From Legionella shakespearei DSM 23087 (lineage in GTDB: Bacteria; Pseudomonadota; Gammaproteobacteria; Legionellales; Legionellaceae), in the NCBI RefSeq assembly GCF_000373765.1, contig NZ_KB892437.1:1-64000 (forward strand): a stretch of DNA of 64,000 nucleotides, in the 5' to 3' direction. The position numbers were made by a program, and so were the translations under genes. Numbering within the stretch: the first letter of the stretch is position 1; every line of letters begins with the position of its first letter. The notes beneath the pieces are model-generated. The model was not told where the DNA came from. It did no database searches and saw nothing but the letters and a program-made list of their open reading frames with translations. Shown one piece after another: positions 7,677 through 56,477 of the stretch.

Positions 7677-9875
7677 ATGGTCAAAGTAAAAGATACCACT
7701 CCCTTAGCCTCCGATGGCAGTATCGATGTAGAGTTGTGGCTGCATCAATTATGCAGTAAAGGGTATTTGGACAATCTTGAACTGATCCGTAGTGCCTGCA
7801 CACTGAGTCAACTTGCAGGACAAGACCATGCTACAGAAACAGGGCAAACCTGTTTACAGCAAGGCTTGTCTATGGCTGATTTGTTGGCTGACCTTGAAGT
7901 GGATCAGGAAACATTAGCCGCAGCGATCATTTTTGAAAATGTTCACTATGCCGATTTATCAATAGATGATGTTGAAGAGCAGCTAGGTCATAACATTGCC
8001 AAGCTGGTAAAAGGCATAGAAAAAATGAGTGCGATGAACAACGTACAGGCACTCAACAAATACCCGCAAAATAAAAACCAAATCGATAACATCCGCAAAA
8101 TGCTTTTGGCAATGGTGGATGATGTCCGTGTAGTATTGATTAAATTGGCTGAGCGTTTATGCGTTTTGCGCACGGCTGGCCATCTGTCTGAAGAGGCGCG
8201 CCGACAATTGGCAACCGAAGCAATGGAAATTTATGCGCCTCTGGCTAACCGCCTGGGTATAGGGGCAATTAAATGGGAAATGGAAGATTTGGCGTTCCGC
8301 TTTTTGTATCCGGATGAATATAAAGCCATAGCGAAGGGATTAAAGGCGAAACGTTTGGATCGGGATAATTTTGTAAATGGAATTGTTGAACAGCTGAATC
8401 ATCGAATTAAAGAAACCGGCGCTCACCATTTTGCTGTCTATGGCCGTTCGAAACATATCAACAGTATCCATAAGAAGATGCAGAGAAAGAATGTATCTCT
8501 TGATGAAATTTATGACGCTACTGCGGTACGGGTCCTTGTTGATACCGAGGCTCAATGCTATGAAGTTTTGGGCATGGTTCATACCTTATGGAAGCAAATT
8601 CCCGCTGAGTTTGATGACTATATATTCAATCCAAAACCCAATGGATATCAATCGTTGCATACTGCAGTGGAAGGCCCGGAAGGGCGGGTTTTTGAGGTTC
8701 AGATTAGAACATTCCATATGCATGATCTTGCTGAAATGGGTGTTGCTGCACATTGGAAATATAAAGAAGGCGGCGTGCAACAAAAAGAAAGCCATGAACG
8801 CAAGATTGAATGGCTTCGTGATGTATTGGCCTGGCATCAGGAAATGGCTGCCAATAAAGGCGTTGCTGAAAATAGTGCTACAGAGTTTCTTGAAGACAGA
8901 GTGTATGTATTTACTCCGGATGGTGATGTTCTGGATATGCAACAAGGGGTCACACCACTCGATTTTGCCTACCATGTCCATAGTGATCTGGGGCACAGAT
9001 GCCGTGGTGCAAAAATTAATGGCCATATCGTGCCGTTAACCTATCAGTTGAAAACGGGTGATAAAGTTGAAGTATTAACCGGAAAGGAAATTAAACCCTC
9101 GCGAGACTGGATCAACCCGCATTTGAATTATTTGAAAACTGCTCGAGCCAAGGCAAAGGTCTTGCATTGGTTTAAGATGCAGGATTATGACGATAATGTT
9201 CGTGATGGACGTGAGATCCTTGAGAAAGAGTTAAAATCTCTAGGAATTAAATCCGACCGTCTAAATGAAGCCGTTACCGCTTTGCAATTTAAAAAGCTGG
9301 ATGATCTGTATGCCAATCTCGGACGGGGTGATATAAAAATAGGCCAGATCGTTAATCGCCTGACTCCTCCGGAATCGTCAGAACAAAATATTTTAAAATT
9401 CGTTAAGCCCAAAAGTGAGGTGACTGGCAGTGATTTGCGTATAGAAGGTGTCGGTAATTTGTTGACCTTTATGGCTCGCTGTTGCCAGCCAGTGCCTGGT
9501 GACGATGTTATTGGTTACATCACAATTGGTCGTGGCGTTTCCATCCACCGTCGTGATTGCCCCAATATTATTCATGCAAGCGAAAAGCAAAAACAGCGTT
9601 TTTTACAAGTCAACTGGGGATCTAAAACTCGGGAAAATTATGTGGTTGATGTATTAATCAAAGCCTTTGATCGCTCTGAATTATTGAAGGATGTTACTTC
9701 ATTATTGTCCAGTGAAAAGGCTCATGTGTTTGCACTGCAAACAAGCAGTAACAAACACGAGAATATGGCTTATATTACATTAACCATAGAAATAGATGGC
9801 TTAAACAGTCTGTCTCGCTTATTAGCTAAACTGGAACAAATTCCCAATGTCATTGAGGCCAGAAGACAGCTTTAG
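7677..9875 (+). CDS. relA: GTP pyrophosphokinase RelA
   Basis: A 732-residue (p)ppGpp synthetase of the stringent response, which binds stalled ribosomes. The N-terminal pseudo-hydrolase domain has FENVHYAD where a working HD hydrolase would have its His-Asp pair, as expected for RelA rather than SpoT. The synthetase follows with YGRSKHINSIHKKM and the FNPKPNGYQSLHT segment. Then come the TGS domain (VFTPDGDVLDM), a Cys-containing zinc-finger region (MARCCQPVPGDD) and a C-terminal ACT domain. In Legionella, RelA links amino-acid starvation to transmissive traits. The gene is coupled to rlmD. Confidence 0.96.
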   Translation: MVKVKDTTPLASDGSIDVELWLHQLCSKGYLDNLELIRSACTLSQLAGQDHATETGQTCLQQGLSMADLLADLEVDQETLAAAIIFENVHYADLSIDDVEEQLGHNIAKLVKGIEKMSAMNNVQALNKYPQNKNQIDNIRKMLLAMVDDVRVVLIKLAERLCVLRTAGHLSEEARRQLATEAMEIYAPLANRLGIGAIKWEMEDLAFRFLYPDEYKAIAKGLKAKRLDRDNFVNGIVEQLNHRIKETGAHHFAVYGRSKHINSIHKKMQRKNVSLDEIYDATAVRVLVDTEAQCYEVLGMVHTLWKQIPAEFDDYIFNPKPNGYQSLHTAVEGPEGRVFEVQIRTFHMHDLAEMGVAAHWKYKEGGVQQKESHERKIEWLRDVLAWHQEMAANKGVAENSATEFLEDRVYVFTPDGDVLDMQQGVTPLDFAYHVHSDLGHRCRGAKINGHIVPLTYQLKTGDKVEVLTGKEIKPSRDWINPHLNYLKTARAKAKVLHWFKMQDYDDNVRDGREILEKELKSLGIKSDRLNEAVTALQFKKLDDLYANLGRGDIKIGQIVNRLTPPESSEQNILKFVKPKSEVTGSDLRIEGVGNLLTFMARCCQPVPGDDVIGYITIGRGVSIHRRDCPNIIHASEKQKQRFLQVNWGSKTRENYVVDVLIKAFDRSELLKDVTSLLSSEKAHVFALQTSSNKHENMAYITLTIEIDGLNSLSRLLAKLEQIPNVIEARRQL

Positions 9876-10571: not shown

Positions 10572-11455
10572 ATGCCTTTAATTGAAGTTGAACATGAAGA
10601 ACCAGATGTTAAGAATAATGCCGGTCTTGTGTTTTCGTTTAAAATGTACTCCGCGCCTACATCTAAATTTGAGTTTGATGGCAGTTTTAATTACCTGACT
10701 AGTGGCAGGCTTATTAAAATCGATACGAGTGAGATTCCCAGGCTTATTTCAGAAGGGGCTATTACCCCATCTAAACAAACAGTCAAAGCTTTAAATTTTA
10801 TACCTGACTTAAAAGTGGATGGATTTGAAGTACATTCACTGCCAGACTCGATTCAAAGTATCTTAAGTAATTATAAAAAAACGATTCAGAATCTTACCGA
10901 AGCCAATTAAGACAGAATTTAAGAGTTGAGATTGAAACACTTTTGTCAGAGTATTTTGGTCTGCCTGCCGTGGCTCTTGATACGGTCTATAGAATTACTG
11001 ATGGCCAAAGCAAAAACCCTTTTAAAGCCTTGCATCTGGTTCATGTAGATTTTCCTGAAGCAGGAATAGATAGAACTTTGCAGGCATTTGAAGGTGAGTG
11101 GTCACCGCGTGCTTTAACCAAAGGCCATGAATATGATGCTGAAAATTTGGAGTTAATGGTAAATATCTGGATGCCTCTGGATACTGTCGTTGCCTCGCCT
11201 CTCACGCTTTGCTCAAGGAGAAAGGTGGATTCAGAGAGATTAGTGGAATATATTGGTGTCAGAAGAGATGAACGTACTTTTTCCGCAGTAGGAATGACTG
11301 CTCCCGCGCACGGAAAAAATGACTCCTGGTTTTTTAAGCCCGGAATGAAAGGAGAATGTTATCTTTTTGATTCCACCAGAGGAATACATTCAGCCACTGA
11401 GTTTCCTGGTGAAACAGAAGTAAGAGAAATAAGGGTAGGGATTTTTAAAAGATAA
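10572..11455 (+). pseudogene. CmcJ/NvfI-type Fe(II)/2OG dioxygenase gene, frameshifted
   Basis: Two ORFs (10572-10910 and an overlapping second frame open to 11455) look like two halves of one gene. The first half has FNYLTSGRL and DLKVDGFEVHSLPDSI. The second has HVD (candidate iron ligands), NIWMPLDTVVASPLTLCS, the YLFDSTRGIHSATEF segment with a distal His, and REIRVGIF. These resemble the start and end of the CmcJ/NvfI/GA4-desaturase-like oxygenases. Restoring one T after the AAT at 10905-10907 joins the frames smoothly (EAN-LRQNLRVEIETLLSEYFG) and gives about 290 residues, the normal family length. It could be a one-base deletion, a sequence error, or a -1 frameshift; no slippery heptamer is evident. 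It is convergent with the RiPP operon. Confidence 0.6.
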
Positions 11456-11495
11456 GCGCACGTAATAGGTCAGGGGGGATCTCCCTGGTAGGGAG

Positions 11496-11646
11496 CACTG
11501 CCATTAGGTTAAAGAGCTCCGCCGTCCCGCGGCTTGTCCGCGGGATCCAGGGATCTAAGTTCGGAGTGAGATTCCTGGATCCCGCGGACAAGCCGCGGGA
11601 CGGCGGAGTATCACTTAAGTTAACTCACGTTAACTTAACGGCAGTG
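11496..11646. mobile_element. Family D MITE, copy 1
   Basis: A 151-bp element with inverted ends CACTGCCATTAGGTTAA and TTAACTTAACGGCAGTG around the palindrome core CCGCGGCTTGTCCGCGG. It is flanked by an 11-bp target duplication: CTGGTAGGGAG at 11485-11495 and CTGGTAGGGTG at 11647-11657, one mismatch. It encodes no transposase. Its right end supplies the last codons and stop of the FAD monooxygenase gene. Confidence 0.85.
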
Positions 11647-13903
11647 CTGGTAGGGTGTGTAAATCGGAACGCTCATGTATCTCAGGTACCGGCTGTTTTC
11701 TATGAAACATGGACAAGCGAACTGTTTCAATAGCTTTTGTTTCGTCCCAGCGCCTGGCATAACACGTCACATATTTTCCTAATTCTTCAGTCATTTCTGA
11801 AACCTCATTGGAACGCCTTCTGAGCACTTCATCATAGTCCTGTAACGTAATCCTTTGAGGCTTGCTCATCAGATGCGCAATCAGTTCCGCGGTAAACAGG
11901 GCATCGTTAATCCCATGGCTGATATGAAAGAAGGGGCGTCTGAATGCATCACCCAAAAGTAAAAATATTTTGCCAGAGGGTGTTTGTACGTAGGCTTTAT
12001 TTGCACAGGTAATCTGGGTGTTAAAAAGGAAAAATTTCACCTGATCTTTATTGGGGCCACTTTTTTTACTTGGGGTAGTGCAAACCACTTCAAATTCATC
12101 TGGATTGAACCCGTGTTGTGACAGCCTTTCGAACAGACCAGTCTCTATGTATTTGATGATTTCGACGATAGCATCTTCACGCTTGGTAGTCGGTTTCTTT
12201 AAGTGTTCGTATAAAGATTGAGGAAGTTCAATCCCGGCGTTAAATTTTGCTTTAGTCACTTCCTGATTGGTATAGCTGTGAGCAAACATAAGGTAATAAA
12301 GACAATAAGCAAAGGGTGGTTCATCGTCTGTGGTCTTTGCTCCTGGCAGGGCTATAAACTGAATGAAAGGAAATTTAAAGGGTTTGCCATCTTTACGCCT
12401 CAATTCCGCATAGAGTGATGCATTTCGCCAGTTTCTTGGGGTGTAAATAGTGTGATGTGCATCACTTTCTGTCAGATATTCAATAGTACTTTGATCTTTT
12501 CTGCTTAACACATCTGCCAAATAATGATTCGAACCATCCGCACCAATCACCATGTCAAAAGAAAATTCTTTCCAAAGATGGTCTGGCTTATAATCAGGCT
12601 CAGCAACCAGGCGTCCGGCATCAAGTGAAACTTCTGCTATACGATGCTTGCGAAGAAAGCTCACTTTCACACCAGGTGATGTCATTCTTTTTTCTAACTG
12701 GGCATGCAAAAAGCGCTCAATGTCTTTTATACCTATTCCCCAACTTTTTTGCATATAGGTTAAGAACTTTTCATCAGCTTTGGTTTTTTCCCCAATCAGT
12801 AATGATTTTAAATATTCTCTTGAACCTTTAGTCAGATAAACAATCTGTGGCCTAAGGTATGCCGCATCACGTTTATCGACCAACATAACAGAATAACCTA
12901 AATCCACCAGTTCAATAGCAGTAGCAAGACCGGATGGTCCCATACCTGAAATGATCACATCATAGTGATTTAATTTAAGCTTTAATTCTGCTTCGCCGGT
13001 CGAAATTCCACCGGTAAATGTATAATCTGCAGTAACAAAATGGTCTTCATTTATTTTCGGATCGTAGACAAATTGAATTTGGGTAGCCAGTGATTCATTA
13101 AGAATAAAATACTGTTCCCCAATATAAGATATAGCATTTACCAATGCTTTAGGTGGTGTACGATAATGACCACTGCGGTTGTCTATTTTACGTATTTTCC
13201 CCTGCTCAACCACAAACTTTCCAGCAAAGTACAAGGGAGCAGCCGCTGTAAAGCTGGAATGATAAAATGCACATTCTTTTGTTGAGCCGGCAAAGAGATC
13301 CCCATTCGGGGTAATCACAATAATAGAACTTCCTGACTCTCCGTGACCGCGGTATCGTCCCGTGTCGAAAGGTGTTAACTCATAAGTACCACCCTGCGGG
13401 GAGCGAGAAAAAGACAATCTTTTTATTAATCCATCACCGGCTCGTACTATTCTGTAAGTTTCCCTTTCCTCTGGTTTGTCGAGATAAACCACATTATCAG
13501 CCTTATCAGCAACCACTTCTTCTTCAGGTACTCTCAGGAGCAGTTCTTCTGGCAGATCGGATCTTTTTTGCCATGGCATGAAATCGGGTATGGCCATTTT
13601 GCATTGTGTGCGTAATGCCATTTGCTTTTTTATATACTCTGGATCATTGCTGCCTATAATAGCCATTACCATTGCTTCTGCACGATGCGCCAAATCATCA
13701 AGTAAAACTTTTTGTTCTGGCTCAGTCCCTTCCTCCAGAAGGTATTTGCATTGAAGCAAGAGCTGATAAAAGCAATCCAGGCGTTCATGGATGAGATTTG
13801 CCGCCATTAACTTTTCGATTATTTGCCTGATGATTTCATCATTAATGACTTCGCCGTCTTTGTAAGATATGGAAATAATCTTCATCTCGTTCTCTGGCTT
13901 CAT
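11630..13903 (-). CDS. Large FAD-dependent monooxygenase of the RiPP operon
   Basis: A 757-residue protein. The C-terminal part (from about 305) is a flavin monooxygenase of the aromatic-hydroxylase/halogenase-like class: dinucleotide motif GMGPSGLATAIEL near 315, an MVIGADGSNHYLAD stretch (the GD-type motif) and LLLGDAFRRPFFHISHGIND (FAD ribityl-binding GD motif). The first 300 residues are a separate part with ITPNGDLFAGSTKECAFYHS and FAGKFVVEQGKIRKIDNRSG, reminiscent of the HHSSFLAGGPV-type segments seen in other bacterial proteins. It begins 20 bases after the YcaO gene with an AGAGAG ribosome-binding site and is the last gene of the operon. It probably oxidises the peptide product or a partner, but that is inference. 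The last four residues and the stop come from an inserted MITE. Confidence 0.75.
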   Translation of the reverse strand: MKPENEMKIISISYKDGEVINDEIIRQIIEKLMAANLIHERLDCFYQLLLQCKYLLEEGTEPEQKVLLDDLAHRAEAMVMAIIGSNDPEYIKKQMALRTQCKMAIPDFMPWQKRSDLPEELLLRVPEEEVVADKADNVVYLDKPEERETYRIVRAGDGLIKRLSFSRSPQGGTYELTPFDTGRYRGHGESGSSIIVITPNGDLFAGSTKECAFYHSSFTAAAPLYFAGKFVVEQGKIRKIDNRSGHYRTPPKALVNAISYIGEQYFILNESLATQIQFVYDPKINEDHFVTADYTFTGGISTGEAELKLKLNHYDVIISGMGPSGLATAIELVDLGYSVMLVDKRDAAYLRPQIVYLTKGSREYLKSLLIGEKTKADEKFLTYMQKSWGIGIKDIERFLHAQLEKRMTSPGVKVSFLRKHRIAEVSLDAGRLVAEPDYKPDHLWKEFSFDMVIGADGSNHYLADVLSRKDQSTIEYLTESDAHHTIYTPRNWRNASLYAELRRKDGKPFKFPFIQFIALPGAKTTDDEPPFAYCLYYLMFAHSYTNQEVTKAKFNAGIELPQSLYEHLKKPTTKREDAIVEIIKYIETGLFERLSQHGFNPDEFEVVCTTPSKKSGPNKDQVKFFLFNTQITCANKAYVQTPSGKIFLLLGDAFRRPFFHISHGINDALFTAELIAHLMSKPQRITLQDYDEVLRRRSNEVSEMTEELGKYVTCYARRWDETKAIETVRLSMFHRKQPVPEIHERSDLHTLPALPLS

Positions 13904-13923
13904 AAATCTCTCTCTTTTCAGGA

Positions 13924-15294
13924 TTAAGGGTAGGGATGTGGATCGGGAAACAACCTGGAACCATAGTCTTTAAAACGGGGATTGCCCAAGGGCGGGGTGC
14001 TTGGCAAGCACAAAGTCAGTAAATCAGGCGACCATACTCTCGGAACCTTGAGTCCAAAATTCTGGACTTCAGACGAGGTGAGATCCACGTAATATAATTG
14101 TTTGTCATTTTCTCTAAATGCAGAAATTAGATAACGTAATTGTCCGTCAATGTTATTAAACATCAGGTCTTCACTTAGTGAAGATGCCTGAACAGCTTCT
14201 GCGTTTAAAAAGTTTCTTGCAATAGCGTCTTTACCCTTTCCAAGTGAGTAATAAGTGATGTTGGCATTAAGATCAAACATCTGTTCTGTACAAAACTCAT
14301 CTTGCTCATCAACAGACTCAGACATGTATTGCCGTTTGTAAATCAACATTCTTGCCAAATTAACAATGCTATACCCTTCAAGATACGCTTTAAACATAGC
14401 CTGTTCGAGTGATAATTCAATCCCCAGGCCAATAGATACATAAGGAGGGCCCTGATCGTGATCCCGATACCACAAACAGGCAACACTAAAGCCAGGCATA
14501 TCCGGATTAGGTAATAAATAAAACTTTTGCTTAAAGGCGCTTTTCCTGGCGTGTTTTGACATGAATTTTGCCAAATGTGATGTTCTGTCATCGAGTTTAA
14601 TTTCATAGCAGGGTGAGTCGGTGTACCAGTGCCCCATGGTGGAATCCAGTTGTATCAGTTCCAGGATGGCGCTATTTAATGCTAATTTGTAATTAATATG
14701 GGCAGCAGTTCCTGTTGAAGCGGCTGAGTTGACTAATAACTCCTGAGGCTGGCAATTATATCCAACAAAAAGAAGCTGGGCAGGGCACCATGCCGGTTCA
14801 TTATCAAGCATAGAGGAAAGCTTGATCCACTGAATACTATCATCCTGATTGAATCGTTTGAAAATAAATTCAGGATCATCATATTGGTTGTCTGAAAATT
14901 GTGAAAAGAAACGTTCACTGACAACTTGCTCACCTTTTTTTACCAGTTCCGCATAGGAACAAAAACGTGTTGGATAATTTTGGCTGGCAGTACTCCAGGC
15001 CATCAATTGACAGTAGCGTTCGATTGTTTCAGCTAAAGACTTAATAAGGGTTTCATTACTACCCGTTCCTATACCACCGACATGATATCCACCTCTACCC
15101 GGATCTGGACGATTAAGCAAATGATGCACACCAGTCAGATATACACCTGAGGTAATAATATTGGGGTCGGCGCTATTAGGGGAGAGAAAACCAATATCCA
15201 CGCCTATCCCGCAAAGTTTACCGATTAATTGATTAAGTAATCTGTGGGTCTGATAGCGAATTCCTGTGCCTTTTTGTAAGTGAGAAATATTCAT
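13924..15294 (-). CDS. YcaO-domain cyclodehydratase
   Basis: A 456-residue YcaO protein, the ATP-using half of a split cyclodehydratase that turns Cys, Ser and Thr of a peptide into azolines. The first ATP/Mg motif is SLAETIERYC. A second acidic helix is NSAILELIQLD and the third is AMFKAYLEGYS. The protein ends PDPHPYP, the PxPxP tail typical of azoline-forming YcaO enzymes, and this separates it from thioamide or amidine types. It starts only 2 bases after the E1-like gene stops, which implies translational coupling and a working complex. With the SagB-like enzyme it should give azoles. Confidence 0.88.
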   Translation of the reverse strand: MNISHLQKGTGIRYQTHRLLNQLIGKLCGIGVDIGFLSPNSADPNIITSGVYLTGVHHLLNRPDPGRGGYHVGGIGTGSNETLIKSLAETIERYCQLMAWSTASQNYPTRFCSYAELVKKGEQVVSERFFSQFSDNQYDDPEFIFKRFNQDDSIQWIKLSSMLDNEPAWCPAQLLFVGYNCQPQELLVNSAASTGTAAHINYKLALNSAILELIQLDSTMGHWYTDSPCYEIKLDDRTSHLAKFMSKHARKSAFKQKFYLLPNPDMPGFSVACLWYRDHDQGPPYVSIGLGIELSLEQAMFKAYLEGYSIVNLARMLIYKRQYMSESVDEQDEFCTEQMFDLNANITYYSLGKGKDAIARNFLNAEAVQASSLSEDLMFNNIDGQLRYLISAFRENDKQLYYVDLTSSEVQNFGLKVPRVWSPDLLTLCLPSTPPLGNPRFKDYGSRLFPDPHPYP

Positions 15295-15296
15295 AG

Positions 15297-16334
15297 CTAC
15301 TCATCCTGCAATAAAGCTTGCACATCAAAATACAATTGCTGGTTGTCACGATGATGCACTGAGCCACAGGTGTCACAACTGGCTAAAGGTTGAACTTCAT
15401 TGTATTTGAATTCCATGGTCGGTATATATATCGAAAACACTTTCCGCTGAGTAAATGTTGTACCCAATATAGAAAAATTCAGTATTTCCTGAGACGCATA
15501 ACTGGCAGCGATATGGCTTATCACCTTATGCAATGGCATAGCAGGAAGAAGTACATTTCCGTTTGCAATGGCCTTTTTATAGCTTAAATAATTTTCTTTG
15601 TATTTAAGATTCATTAAAGCACGCTGTTCAAAACAGTCGTAACAGGGAGAACCCTGAGGTGTAATGGTTGGTCCAATAAACAAATAGGGTCCATCAATAC
15701 TCACAGGAAGCCAGGTTACTTTGAGTTTGCGGCAAATAATATTGAAATAATGTGCTCGAACAGGGTTCATGCGATCCTGGGCGTACAGAACATACTTACC
15801 CGATAAATCAGAAAACAAAGAACAGGTTTTTTCTATTGCAAAAGCATCAAAGAAATCATTTTCACTTAATGACGCCAGTGTTTCCGTCATGCTTTTTGGT
15901 GCATTGGATATGCTGAGAACTTCTGCAGCCAATTCATCTTTCAATATATAAGAAACAGCCTTGGTTATTTCATTATCACCAAAAAGAACAATATCTTTTA
16001 GTACTTTATTGGAGGAAGAATAACGGTTCAAAGTGCTATTGTATAAAGAGGAGTAATAATCAAGCAGCGATTCGGAGCCATCGGCTAAAAGATCAAGCTG
16101 AGCCAGCTCATCGATTAATCCGCAGATTTGTTCGGGTGATGTATCAGTAGCATCGGCTATCTCATCAACCGAAGACTTGCCATCAAACAAGGCAATCACT
16201 TTGGATAAAAGCCCGGTATTCTCATCATCGTTCAGATAATGTGAACGGGACTCAAGACAACAATCGCGGATTTCGATGTGATTGGCATCATGGAAGATAA
16301 CTGAAAATTGTGACTTTATTTTAGGATAGTACAT
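15297..16334 (-). CDS. E1-like partner of the YcaO cyclodehydratase (SagC/TOMM type)
   Basis: A protein of about 345 residues related to the ThiF/E1-like proteins that bind the leader peptide and present the substrate to YcaO. The N-terminal third, including ALFDGKSSVDEIADATDTSP, resembles the winged-helix leader-binding part. The C-terminal half has two Cys pairs, SPCYDC and SCDTCG, which form the zinc tetracysteine common in these proteins. No ATP-binding E1 site is obvious, as usual. The start is uncertain: the ATG at 16334 gives a family-like N-terminus, while an in-frame TTG at 16352 would add six residues. It lies between the SagB and YcaO genes. Confidence 0.8.
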   Translation of the reverse strand: MYYPKIKSQFSVIFHDANHIEIRDCCLESRSHYLNDDENTGLLSKVIALFDGKSSVDEIADATDTSPEQICGLIDELAQLDLLADGSESLLDYYSSLYNSTLNRYSSSNKVLKDIVLFGDNEITKAVSYILKDELAAEVLSISNAPKSMTETLASLSENDFFDAFAIEKTCSLFSDLSGKYVLYAQDRMNPVRAHYFNIICRKLKVTWLPVSIDGPYLFIGPTITPQGSPCYDCFEQRALMNLKYKENYLSYKKAIANGNVLLPAMPLHKVISHIAASYASQEILNFSILGTTFTQRKVFSIYIPTMEFKYNEVQPLASCDTCGSVHHRDNQQLYFDVQALLQDE

Positions 16335-16465
16335 CTTATTCTCTGGTTCCAAGGTAACTGTATACTCTGTAGCAAGAAAGAAGCATCATTTTTGTTTCTT
16401 ACCTGCGCTTCAATTTGATTCGTTTCCATAACTCAATCCTGAGACAGGCATTTCATCCTTGAAAT

Positions 16466-17392
16466 TCAAGCTTTACCTACTACAACTGCATGTAAAAAAG
16501 TTTGATATAAACCATCTATTTTCAGGATTTCATGAAGTTCCTCATCATAAAAACCACCGGCATCAACACTCGCTAACCCTTGAGCTACTGCGGCCAGATG
16601 AATATTCTGTGACATTGAACCACATTCCTGAAGAATAAAACGCAAACCTCTGGGGCCATACTTGCGCATGGAACGCCAGGGATTAGCTATCATAATCAAA
16701 AGTAAATTGGCTTTGACATAGGAGTTGGCGTCCGCTGAATTCACATGAGCATCGCGAAACAAACGAGCCGCTATATCAGCATCCTGTTCGGGGATTAAGG
16801 TATTCGCCAGCGGATCATACCCATACACGCCATTATTTATATGTTCAATGTTTTGGGTGGCAACATATAAATCTATGGGATAAAGAGCACCAGCACTTGC
16901 CGCTGCTCTGAAGTGTAATTCTACCTCAACACCATTGTTCAGCGTTGAATCACCAGTGCCTGTTATGCCCGCGGCAACTTGTATGATTTGAGCCATTTCT
17001 TTAAATGAAAGGAGTTCTGCTCTAAAATTGCGGCTACTACGTCTGTTTAATATCACCTGGTCTAAAGACATTCCCAGTTGCATTGACTCAACTGGCGGTA
17101 ATTGTATCGCTAGCTCGGTTGCGTGAGTTCTTTTGCCTATTTGTGACAGAGTGCAAATGCCAGCATCATCCAGATAAATTTCATTTGTATTCAATTGTTC
17201 GGCATCATGACGATGAAAAATTGATGACTTAAGAAAATCAAAAGCATATTGCGGATTTTTTTGTTCAGTGAAGCGATAGGTATTTGTTTTAAAACCAACG
17301 GTCATTGACGTATCGCGGTAATCGTACGTATTACCCCAGACAGAACGATTGATGATTTCCTTTAATTGCACTGTTTTATTGGTTGGCTTCAT
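16466..17392 (-). CDS. SagB-type FMN dehydrogenase (azoline oxidase)
   Basis: A 308-residue nitroreductase-fold protein of the SagB/McbC group, which oxidises thiazolines and oxazolines to thiazoles and oxazoles with FMN. Visible features are NRRSSRNF (FMN phosphate contact), the hallmark SAGALYPIDLYVATQN, NNGVYGYDP and the late LLLIMIANPWRSMRKYGPRG and HLAAVAQGLASVDAGGFYDE stretches. It follows the precursor gene by about 90 bases that can fold into competing hairpins. Its presence predicts a product with at least some full azole rings. Confidence 0.85.
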   Translation of the reverse strand: MKPTNKTVQLKEIINRSVWGNTYDYRDTSMTVGFKTNTYRFTEQKNPQYAFDFLKSSIFHRHDAEQLNTNEIYLDDAGICTLSQIGKRTHATELAIQLPPVESMQLGMSLDQVILNRRSSRNFRAELLSFKEMAQIIQVAAGITGTGDSTLNNGVEVELHFRAAASAGALYPIDLYVATQNIEHINNGVYGYDPLANTLIPEQDADIAARLFRDAHVNSADANSYVKANLLLIMIANPWRSMRKYGPRGLRFILQECGSMSQNIHLAAVAQGLASVDAGGFYDEELHEILKIDGLYQTFLHAVVVGKA

Positions 17393-17483
17393 AGTAAGGC
17401 TTAAAACCTGAACGTAAAAGATGAGTTAACTGAGCTGCATCAGATTAAAACAATCAGTTGCAGCTCATGAGCTGCTGTTCTAA

Positions 17484-17654
17484 TTATTTATTTTTAGATG
17501 TTTTTCTGGAAACAGAGATACTGCAGGTTGAAGCGCCAGGCATAATCATGCTTTTGTTCAGGCTATCCTGACCAGCCAGGTGACGCGCTGTATCACGATT
17601 TTCTACAGAAGTTTCCTTTTTGATGTTCCAGGATTTGATGATACGATTGTTCAT
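17484..17654 (-). CDS. LAP/TOMM precursor peptide, 56 residues
   Basis: A small gene read on the minus strand, starting MNNRIIKSWNIKKETS and ending SRKTSKNK. A strong AAGGAG ribosome-binding site lies 6-7 bases before the ATG at 17654. The first 41 residues are charged and leader-like. The last 15 begin with STCSISVS and contain one Cys, five Ser and two Thr (residues 42-53), a plausible core for heterocyclisation. A likely leader/core junction is near PGA (39-41), but no protease site is certain. It is the first gene after a good promoter and directly precedes the modifying enzymes, the usual place for a RiPP precursor. It is too short for many gene callers. Confidence 0.75.
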   Translation of the reverse strand: MNNRIIKSWNIKKETSVENRDTARHLAGQDSLNKSMIMPGASTCSISVSRKTSKNK

Positions 17655-17690
17655 AATATTACTCCTTAAATTTATTGAATCGCCGCGGTC

Positions 17691-17718
17691 ATTATATCTG
17701 GCTTTTTTATAAGATCAA
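17691..17718 (-). promoter_or_regulatory. Promoter of the RiPP operon
   Basis: On the minus strand, -35 TTGATC and a perfect -10 TATAAT are separated by 16 bases. The -10 lies 36 bases before the precursor start codon. It sits in the 79-bp gap after the Mth938-like gene, so the RiPP operon can be transcribed on its own. Confidence 0.7.
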
Positions 17719-17733
17719 TTAAAAAACTTCTTG

Positions 17734-18099
17734 TTAAAAAATAAATCCCGCAACTACTGATCGCATCTCAGCAAGCAAGACATTATAGGTACGGCAAGCC
17801 GCACCTATAGACATGCATTCAATGCCTATCCGTTGCCGGGATAATTGGCTGATTATCTCATAAGGCGGAAATTTTCCTGTGTTTTCATGACCAATAATGA
17901 TTAATTCCGGCTTGCATTGCAGTAACAGCTTAAGATATTCATCATCGATTTCCTGAATATTTTTTATTGCCAAATCAGCGATAATTTCCTCTCTGGAAAC
18001 AATTAAACTGTTTTCATAAACTGTGGAATTGATTTGAATCTGTTTCTCATCATATGCCTGAACCGCGTGTTGTTCTGCTGCTTCTAAATTGATATTCAT
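17734..18099 (-). CDS. Mth938-like domain protein (DUF498 family)
   Basis: A 121-residue protein of the Mth938/NDUFAF3-like fold. The diagnostic part is PELIIIGHENTGKFPPYEII, followed by a GIECMSIGAACRTYNVL segment close to the family signature. No enzyme activity is established for bacterial members. It runs in the same direction as the RiPP operon and lies just upstream, but this is a widespread gene and the operon has its own promoter, so a shared role is unlikely. It is divergent from alaC. Confidence 0.8.
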   Translation of the reverse strand: MNINLEAAEQHAVQAYDEKQIQINSTVYENSLIVSREEIIADLAIKNIQEIDDEYLKLLLQCKPELIIIGHENTGKFPPYEIISQLSRQRIGIECMSIGAACRTYNVLLAEMRSVVAGFIF

Positions 18100-36539: not shown

Positions 36540-36663
36540 ACTAAGGATTTCCGCCGTCCCGCGGCTTGTCCGCGGGATCCAGAGTTCTGAGCTCAGAGTG
36601 ACATTCCTGGATCCCGCGGACAAGCCGCGGGACGGCGGAGTAGTGCTTAACTTAATGGCAGTA
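36540..36663. mobile_element. Family D MITE, copy 2
   Basis: A 124-bp element with a shortened left end (CACTAAGG) and a typical right end (TTAACTTAATGGCAGTA) around the CCGCGGCTTGTCCGCGG core. It is flanked by a perfect 11-bp duplication ATTCCCAGATC (36529-36539 and 36664-36674). The target lay immediately beside the family A copy that follows. Confidence 0.88.
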
Positions 36664-50913: not shown

Positions 50914-51242
50914 CACTGTCATTAAGTTAAGGAGTTCCGCCGTCCCGCGGCTTGTCCGCGGGATCCAGGAATGTCACTCCGAACTTAGATCTCTGGATAC
51001 CGCGGACAAGCTGCGGTACGGTGGAGTATCGCTTAACTCAACGAGTTTTGGATAAGAAAGTTGTTTATCCAGTCGTTACTTCGATGCCGTTCGGGCTGAG
51101 GAGAGGCGGTAGCCTCGTCTCGAAGCCTTAGCACCATGCCAAGGCTTCGAGACAGCGCTATCGCGCTTCCTCAGCCCGAACGGATCGAGGTAAACATCAA
51201 ACAACTTTCTTATCCGAAACTCACGTTAACTTAATGGTAATA
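50914..51242. mobile_element. Family D MITE, copy 3, carrying a nested family E element
   Basis: The left end CACTGTCATTAAGTTAAG and right end TTAACTTAATGGTAATA enclose the D core and, inside it, a complete family E element (about 51047-51225). The flanking 11-mers GACGTTAGGGA (50903-50913) and AGCGTTAGGGA (51243-51253) match at 9 of 11 positions, an older target duplication. It is part of a 592-bp gene-free stretch. Confidence 0.8.
51047..51225. repeat. Family E element, copy 3 (full, nested)
   Basis: Ends GAGTTTTGGATAAGAA and TTCTTATCCGAAACTC. Inside are TTCGATGCCGTTCGGGCTGA and a near-mirror with CAGCGCTATCGCGCTTCC. The two halves carry different hairpin sequences (GGCGGTAGCC versus GCGCTATCGC). 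Confidence 0.85.
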
Positions 51243-56341: not shown

Positions 56342-56477
56342 CACTGCCATTAAGTTAAGCGCTACTCCGCCGTACCGCGGCTTGTCCGCGGTATCCAGAG
56401 ATCTAAGTTCGGAGTGAGATTCCTGGATCCCGCGGACAAGCCGCGGGACGACGGAATTCCTTAACTTAATGGTAGTG
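56342..56477. mobile_element. Family D MITE, copy 4, inserted in a family C palindrome
   Basis: A 136-bp element with ends CACTGCCATTAAGTTAAG and CTTAACTTAATGGTAGTG. It is flanked by a perfect 11-bp duplication GCGAGCAGACC (56331-56341 and 56478-56488). Removing the element and one copy of the duplication restores an unbroken family C arm (from CCCGGCTGCG to CCGGGCTAC, about 56324-56495). This defines the element's exact boundaries. Decayed family F and C pieces fill the rest of the 459-bp gap before ralF. Confidence 0.93.

What the first reader, a model, noticed from the sequence alone, without database searches (positions are those of the whole stretch)
11630..17718. Uncharacterised LAP/TOMM-type RiPP operon in a Legionella chromosome
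One minus-strand unit encodes, in order: promoter, precursor peptide, SagB-like FMN dehydrogenase, E1-like partner with two Cys pairs, YcaO with a PxPxP end (PDPHPYP) and a large FAD monooxygenase. Spacing is 2 bases between E1-like and YcaO genes and 20 bases between YcaO and monooxygenase. The families are established azole-forming enzymes; that they act together on this precursor is inference. No transporter or protease is in the operon, so export and maturation must use other genes. A peptide of this kind could act on competitors, amoebae or host cells.
Basis: partly seen in the sequence, partly recalled or inferred. Interest (0 to 1): 0.86.

Follow-up and report, generated by a model that had tools for sequence, protein, structure and literature searches.

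The report
Divergent azole-peptide gene cluster in Legionella
A Legionella chromosome carries a small set of genes that most likely makes a short ring-modified peptide distantly related to the streptolysin S group, but without the cutting and export genes that its relatives carry and with an unrelated oxygenase gene beside it.

Summary
In detail: five intact minus-strand genes (56-aa precursor, SagB-, SagC- and SagD/YcaO-like enzymes, 757-aa FAD monooxygenase) lie at 11630-17654. A profile of 11 relatives' precursors, built without this one, ranks the 56-aa ORF first of 1843 window frames (E 1.9e-7, next 0.26). YcaO relatives were found in 14 loci, 9 of them gammaproteobacterial; 13 of 14 match two CPBP (CAAX-type) proteases. 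This cluster differs: no CPBP protease in it or detected in the genome, no exporter gene in it, one Cys in the core instead of 2-8 and a basic tail, and a changed motif in SagC's N-terminal part. The monooxygenase joins two modules that occur apart in other Legionellaceae proteins and is in 0 of 14 relatives, so it is probably effector-like cargo rather than an established tailoring enzyme. The cluster sits between relA/spoT and a DUF498 gene, a site holding under 0.7 kb in 24 of 40 congeners. Verdict: a divergent linear azole peptide cluster, distantly SLS/propionisin-like, function untested, probably not a classical cytolysin.

The parts
17691..17718 (-). promoter-like site TTGATC-16-TATAAT upstream of the precursor
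   Evidence: not more frequent than chance in the region, so only consistent
17484..17654 (-). precursor peptide, 56 aa; leader about 1-40, boundary ...IMPG, core about 41-56 (ASTCSISVSRKTSKNK)
   Evidence: profile of 11 relatives' precursors ranks it 1 of 1843 frames, E 1.9e-7; P39, G40, C44 invariant in the window and 10 relatives
16466..17392 (-). SagB-like FMN dehydrogenase (308 aa)
   Evidence: TIGR03605 7.8e-36, PF00881 4.3e-18; keeps 23 of 26 residues invariant in 10 relatives
15297..16334 (-). SagC/E1-like leader-binding cyclodehydratase partner (345 aa from ATG; TTG alternative at 16352)
   Evidence: TIGR03882 1.4e-11, TIGR03603 5.9e-16 but under its cut-off; four Cys invariant in 11 of 11; keeps 33 of 38 invariant residues, losing the G-x-W-N motif
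13924..15294 (-). SagD/YcaO cyclodehydratase (456 aa), ends PHPYP
   Evidence: PF02624 4.4e-36, TIGR03604 2.2e-56; keeps 67 of 70 invariant residues
11630..13903 (-). FAD monooxygenase (757 aa): N-terminal HSSF/SGHY module about 117-270, then FAD monooxygenase part about 313-700 with GxGxxG 320, DG 455, GD 651
   Evidence: membership in the peptide pathway not shown
17734..18099 (-). DUF498 gene, right border of the variable site (not part of the pathway)
   Evidence: PF04430 1e-25; found in 16 of 16 fetched gap loci
7677..9875 (+). relA/spoT-type gene, left border of the variable site (not part of the pathway)
   Evidence: matched in 45 of 45 genus genomes, own included

Best explanation
This is a divergent linear azol(in)e peptide (LAP/TOMM) cluster. 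The SagC-like protein should bind the leader of the 56-aa precursor; SagC and the ATP-using YcaO (SagD) should cyclise Cys44 and some of the neighbouring Ser/Thr of the core ASTCSISVS..., and the SagB-like enzyme should oxidise azolines to azoles. Shown: gene content, intact reading frames, precursor homology, conserved residues. Inferred: the chemistry, how many rings, where the leader is cut. The cluster belongs to a family found here in Gammaproteobacteria, Actinomycetota and Chloroflexota whose other members nearly always carry two CPBP proteases and often an exporter; this copy lacks them, and a two-module FAD monooxygenase stands where the proteases stand in relatives. Leader removal must therefore use an unrelated protease (TldD/E is a recalled guess, not searched for), or the leader stays on. 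The product would be a short, basic, Cys-poor azole peptide, probably not a classical cytolysin. The monooxygenase is more likely separate effector-like cargo at this variable site than a tailoring enzyme.
For: SagB/C/D family hits. Precursor profile built without the window: rank 1 of 1843 frames, E 1.9e-7; a second profile, with the window included, finds this place in the whole genome and next only E 1.37. The eight letters MPGASTCS at the start of the core are shared with L023, a gammaproteobacterial MAG. Residues invariant in 10 relatives are kept at 23/26, 33/38 and 67/70 in SagB, SagC, SagD; relatives scored the same way range 77-100%, 73-100% and 81-100%. Matches to two CPBP seeds at E up to 1e-4 in 13 of 14 relatives (the seeds come from one of them, L004), none in the own genome by PF02517 (control rings in 11 of 14 genomes) or by two family profiles without a positive control. 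Monooxygenase: of 133 genomes in the order sample only the own one has a full-length match; matches elsewhere cover one half or less; 0 of 14 relative loci match it.
Against: No conspecific second copy, so selection on the precursor could not be tested. The core is poorer in Cys than in 11 relatives (1 versus 2-8) and its tail is unlike theirs, so it could be a decaying substrate. SagC lost three residues (G25, W27, N28) kept in 10 of 10 relatives, and in SagB and SagC the window stands towards the low end of residue retention (third and second lowest of 11). YcaO is below the TIGR03604 and SagC below the TIGR03603 curated cut-off. No protease or exporter is known for it. Promoter at chance level, intergenic hairpin weak (z -1.5).
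Confidence: 0.72

Rival explanations
1. The FAD monooxygenase is a true tailoring enzyme of the pathway, for example hydroxylating the peptide or its N-terminal amine after cleavage at PG|AS, replacing the luciferase-like monooxygenase seen in some relatives.
For: 20-base spacing on the same strand; an unrelated luciferase-like monooxygenase stands downstream in 4 of 14 relatives, one of them the seed, so oxidation may be a theme of the family. Azolemycin (recalled; only titles seen) is an azole peptide with an oxime; that a flavin monooxygenase makes it is from memory.
Against: Its partial relatives occur in many Legionellaceae genomes (43 of 133 genomes matched, own included), while a YcaO of this family was found in only 3 of 143 genomes of the order; it has an extra N-terminal module; 0 of 14 relative clusters match it.
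Confidence: 0.25
2. A decaying remnant: a former SLS-like cluster that lost its proteases, its exporter and most of its Cys core and no longer makes a product.
For: Missing proteases and exporter; Cys-poor core; motif loss in SagC.
Against: All reading frames intact; the three enzymes keep invariant residues within the range of the relatives; Shine-Dalgarno-like site and conserved boundary motif in the precursor.
Confidence: 0.17
3. A classical streptolysin S-like cytolysin.
For: SagB-C-D architecture; leader-core boundary of the same general kind; the best plasmid YcaO matches are Borreliella records at about 27% identity, and Borrelia carry SLS-like clusters (PMC4513790, passages).
Against: The run of 9-10 contiguous heterocyclisable residues given as defining (PMC4513790, passages) is absent: longest run is 4. 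No CAAX protease or ABC exporter, which all cytolysin clusters catalogued in PMC4603692 have (passage).
Confidence: 0.04

Closest known systems
Streptolysin S-type (cytolysin) TOMM clusters
   Same: Discrete B, C and D proteins and a short precursor (criteria from passages of PMC4513790 and PMC4603692)
   Different: No run of 9-10 heterocyclisable residues, no CAAX protease, no ABC exporter, basic tail; added FAD monooxygenase
Propionisin TOMM clusters (PMC4603692, section 19)
   Same: Discrete cyclodehydratase with a D protein nearest to cytolysins; multiple CaaX-like proteases resemble the two CPBPs of the relatives found here
   Different: Window cluster has no CaaX protease or ABC exporter; no sequence comparison with propionisins was made here
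The unnamed SagB-C-D plus two-CPBP family found here (L004, L005, L009, L022-L025, L028-L034)
   Same: SagB, SagC and SagD matches in 13 of 14 loci (L033 is cut off) and the same precursor family
   Different: Relatives match two CPBPs (13 of 14) and some have MATE or ABC exporters; window has a Cys-poor core and a different oxygenase
Legionellaceae FAD monooxygenases (open frames of about 465-1300 aa; one of four scanned has ankyrin repeats over the cut-off, L014)
   Same: C-terminal half of the 757-aa protein, 21-27% identity for eight of them in the alignment
   Different: Window protein has the HSSF/SGHY module fused in front and lies beside a RiPP cluster
Azolemycin (recalled; only titles seen)
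   Same: Azole peptide with oxime formation; a flavin monooxygenase in its pathway is recalled
   Different: Its enzymes and cluster could not be compared; paper not held

Membership tests
LAP/TOMM (azol(in)e RiPP) cluster | YcaO cyclodehydratase of the TOMM type | tested here: met
   PF02624 above cut-off; TIGR03604 E 2e-56 but 28 bits under its curated cut-off
LAP/TOMM (azol(in)e RiPP) cluster | E1-like/leader-binding partner (C protein) | tested here: met
   TIGR03882 44.9 bits against cut-off 36.9
LAP/TOMM (azol(in)e RiPP) cluster | FMN dehydrogenase (B protein) | tested here: met
   TIGR03605 123 bits against cut-off 78.4
LAP/TOMM (azol(in)e RiPP) cluster | Precursor with heterocyclisable core | tested here: met
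   profile E 1.9e-7, rank 1 of 1843; 8 of 16 core residues are C/S/T
LAP/TOMM (azol(in)e RiPP) cluster | Azoles actually formed on the peptide | not testable with these tools
   needs mass spectrometry
SLS-like cytolysin | 9-10 contiguous heterocyclisable residues at the start of the core | tested here: not met
   longest C/S/T run is 4; in 11 relatives 5-8, so they too fall short (criterion from passages of PMC4513790)
SLS-like cytolysin | CAAX-type protease and ABC transporter in the cluster | tested here: not met
   neither among the proteins scanned at 10572-18099; PF02517 without a match in the whole genome
Two-CPBP SagB-C-D family found here | SagB-C-D with family precursor | tested here: met
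Two-CPBP SagB-C-D family found here | two CPBP proteases downstream | tested here: not met
   13 of 14 relatives match two, the window none
Dot/Icm-type effector (for the monooxygenase only) | translocation by the type IV system | not testable with these tools
   only resemblance in domain make-up to Legionellaceae proteins
TfuA-linked thioamide YcaO | TfuA partner beside the YcaO | tested here: not met
   no TfuA family in the listings for eight proteins at 10572-18099 (for the monooxygenase the NCBIfam list showed 25 of 58 families)

The most novel reading that the evidence does not exclude
A RiPP cluster that has left the CPBP-protease/exporter way of life of its family and been rebuilt in Legionella: a short basic azole peptide with re-tuned leader recognition, co-expressed with a fused, effector-like FAD monooxygenase that either oxidises the peptide in an unknown way or works with it inside the host cell.
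Probability: 0.12. Interest if true: 0.8.

Novelty: new variant of a known kind. Interest (0 to 1): 0.5.

Why it matters
No azole-peptide (LAP) pathway from Legionella showed up in the listings of five searches of the held papers (open-licence PubMed Central only; three of the listed papers were opened for Legionella or YcaO passages, the rest were judged from the listing). If this cluster makes a product, it would be a peptide of an intracellular amoeba-living genus whose role (rival bacteria, amoeba or none) can be asked, and whose maturation must work without the protease family matched in 13 of the 14 relatives. The wider family, 9 of 14 loci from Gammaproteobacteria and many of those from metagenomes, is itself a set of unexplored precursors.

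Tried and rejected
Single-protein scan of genome contigs with the window YcaO found no relative; the five-row alignment found 13. Plasmid records gave only distant YcaO matches (26 records, 20 listed, best about 27% identity), one 15%-coverage match to the monooxygenase, and for the precursor one match of no weight (E 0.2). PADLOC: no match for the five proteins. Solved-structure search with a relative of the N-terminal module: none; with the monooxygenase itself and a relative: mainly FAD-binding stretches. A paper search on Legionella flavin monooxygenase effectors listed 2 papers, neither opened. Rejected: a second precursor elsewhere in the genome (next best E 1.37); attenuator hairpin between precursor and sagB (z -1.5, 10 of 200 shuffles as good). 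A close sister relation to the two other Legionellaceae clusters is not supported: the YcaO tree leaves the window on a long branch of its own in an unresolved fork, so a separate origin is possible but not proven. A first alignment of the monooxygenase with its relatives misplaced the N-terminal module and was redone with trimmed rows. Leader removal by TldD/E was considered, from memory only; no genome search was left to test for it. Dropped rows: of 14 relatives, L032, L033 and L034 were left out of the precursor profile (L032's precursor-like stretch appeared only inside a long frame; L033 and L034 have partial YcaO matches and were not scanned for short ORFs beyond the motif search); in two rows (L029, L030) the precursor was cut to an inner ATG. 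In one search the seeds for SagB, SagC, SagD and the monooxygenase were left out by a script error; supply them.
Full report
What is there. On the minus strand at 11630-17654 stand five intact genes: a 56-aa precursor, a SagB-like dehydrogenase, an E1-like SagC protein, a YcaO (SagD) and a 757-aa FAD monooxygenase. Family searches confirm the three azole enzymes, with SagB and SagC over a curated cut-off (TIGR03605, TIGR03882) and YcaO over that of PF02624 but under that of TIGR03604. Spacings are 91, 131, 2 and 20 bases. The stated promoter letters exist, but such matches are at chance level in the region.

The precursor is real. In relatives, small ORFs upstream of SagB carry a related leader and a PG boundary followed by a Cys/Ser/Thr-rich core. 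A profile of 11 of these, without the window, scored the window's 56-aa ORF first of 1843 six-frame stop-to-stop frames (E 1.9e-7; the next was 0.26). P39, G40 and C44 are invariant in the window and 10 aligned relatives. The eight letters MPGASTCS are shared with L023.

How widespread. Own genome included, the YcaO was found in 2 of 45 genomes of the genus (E up to 1e-10), 3 of 143 of the order and 3 of 369 of a class sample (E up to 1e-20); the alignment found 13 loci in genome contigs. L026 and L027 of those are identical to the contigs of G025 and G135 (L004, L005), and L030 shares a 2-kb piece with that of G293 (L008), so with L009 from G171 there are 14 relatives: 9 gammaproteobacterial, the rest Streptomyces, Actinomadura and Chloroflexota. 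SagB and SagC matches are in 13 of 14; L033 is cut by its contig end. In the YcaO tree of 13 rows the window forms a long branch of its own in an unresolved fork; the two other Legionellaceae clusters pair with each other at full support.

What differs. Thirteen of the 14 relatives match two CPBP seeds at E up to 1e-4 (the exception is L032); 4 of 14 a luciferase-like monooxygenase, 4 of 14 a MATE transporter, 5 of 14 an ABC ATPase (the seeds come from L004 and L009, which count, and some contigs end early). The proteins scanned in the window's site match none of these. In its whole genome (57 contigs, given as 100% complete) PF02517 has no match, while the same search rings in 11 of 14 control genomes; the two CPBP family profiles also find nothing, without a positive control of their own. 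The core has 1 Cys, longest C/S/T run 4, net charge +4; 11 relatives have 2-8 Cys, runs of 5-8 and charge -1 to +2. In SagC, G25, W27 and N28, kept in 10 of 10 relatives, are changed; this lies in the N-terminal part that should bind the leader (inference from the family). The enzymes otherwise keep 23/26, 33/38 and 67/70 of the residues invariant in the relatives, within the relatives' own range (77-100%, 73-100%, 81-100%) though at its lower end for SagB and SagC.

The monooxygenase. Of 133 genomes in an order sample, 43 have a match at 1e-5 (own included), but only the own genome has a full-length one; the others cover residues within about 17-290 or about 260-730. The first part, with HSSF and SGHY motifs, is found in open frames mostly of 300-540 aa, some up to about 1000. 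A relative of that module (L017) also matches plasmid-borne proteins, among them LXG-domain proteins of Listeria innocua (3 of 11 records), but over 62 residues only and at E 2e-4 to 3e-4, a weak hint. The second part is a group-A-type FAD monooxygenase with GxGxxG, DG and GD motifs (the class and motif names are recalled); one of four scanned Legionellaceae relatives has ankyrin repeats over the cut-off. This looks like a two-module, effector-like protein of the host lineage (inference). Translocation was not tested. Its place 20 bases after YcaO makes co-transcription likely (inference), not a shared pathway; 0 of 14 relatives match it.

Where it sits. relA/spoT and the aminotransferase gene bound a site whose gap is 8336 bases here. 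In 40 other genus genomes with both genes on one contig it is 437-653 bases in 24 and 1.2-12.9 kb in 16. I fetched 16 of those 40 gaps, 4 short and 12 long; DUF498 is in all 16, and none matches the five operon proteins. Ten proteins from eight of the long gaps were scanned: six have matches (an MbnB/TglH/ChrH RiPP enzyme, two patatins, an ankyrin protein, a cyclase domain and a glycosyltransferase domain), four have none. So the site takes up varied cargo, another RiPP-type enzyme included.

How it most likely works. SagC binds the leader, SagC-SagD cyclise Cys44 and some of the neighbouring Ser/Thr, SagB oxidises; the leader is removed by a protease outside the CPBP family or not at all. Only the gene evidence is shown; the chemistry follows from the families. 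A classical cytolysin is unlikely, because the 9-10 residue run (PMC4513790, passages) and the CAAX protease and ABC exporter (PMC4603692, passages, sections 19 and 27) are missing. The relatives' cores also fall short of that run (5-8), so the whole family is SLS-related at most.

Literature. Held papers name a Legionella pneumophila graspetide (PMC9576775, one passage) and a ycaO-tfu pair in Legionella conjugative elements (PMC3218107, one passage), not this. PMC11278768 was seen in two passages. No Legionella LAP was seen in the listings.

Noticed in passing
window 11505-11612 (also about 36556-36633, 50942-51019, 56365-56455): A palindromic repeat of about 100 bases just downstream of the monooxygenase; 4 places in the window (8 half-site matches) and 82 strand-wise matches, about 41 places, in the genome, a lower bound because 40 of 151 candidates were scored.
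   Followed up: partly
window 10572-11455, + strand: Two adjacent small ORFs converging on the operon; the second matches part (96-219 of 263) of the CmcJ/NvfI oxidoreductase family, well under its cut-off, so it may be a partial gene.
   Followed up: no
L043 1275-2111 (G011), with like-sized ORFs in L046, L049, L050: The same relA/spoT-DUF498 site holds an MbnB/TglH/ChrH-type RiPP enzyme in L043; ORFs of nearly the same sizes stand in the three others (of these only one other ORF of L046 was scanned).
   Followed up: partly
window 16316-16429, - strand: A 37-aa ORF overlaps the start of sagC in the 131-base sagB-sagC gap; not compared further.
   Followed up: no
window 26850-59684: Seven matches to the Rfam family Legionella RNA 69 (LPR69), six of them in three opposite-strand pairs 29-306 bases apart.
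   Followed up: no
L004, L005, L023, L029: Relatives carry a luciferase-like monooxygenase, nearest to the MupA/Atu3671 type but under its cut-off in L004 and L005: a possible unexplored oxidation of azole peptides.
   Followed up: partly
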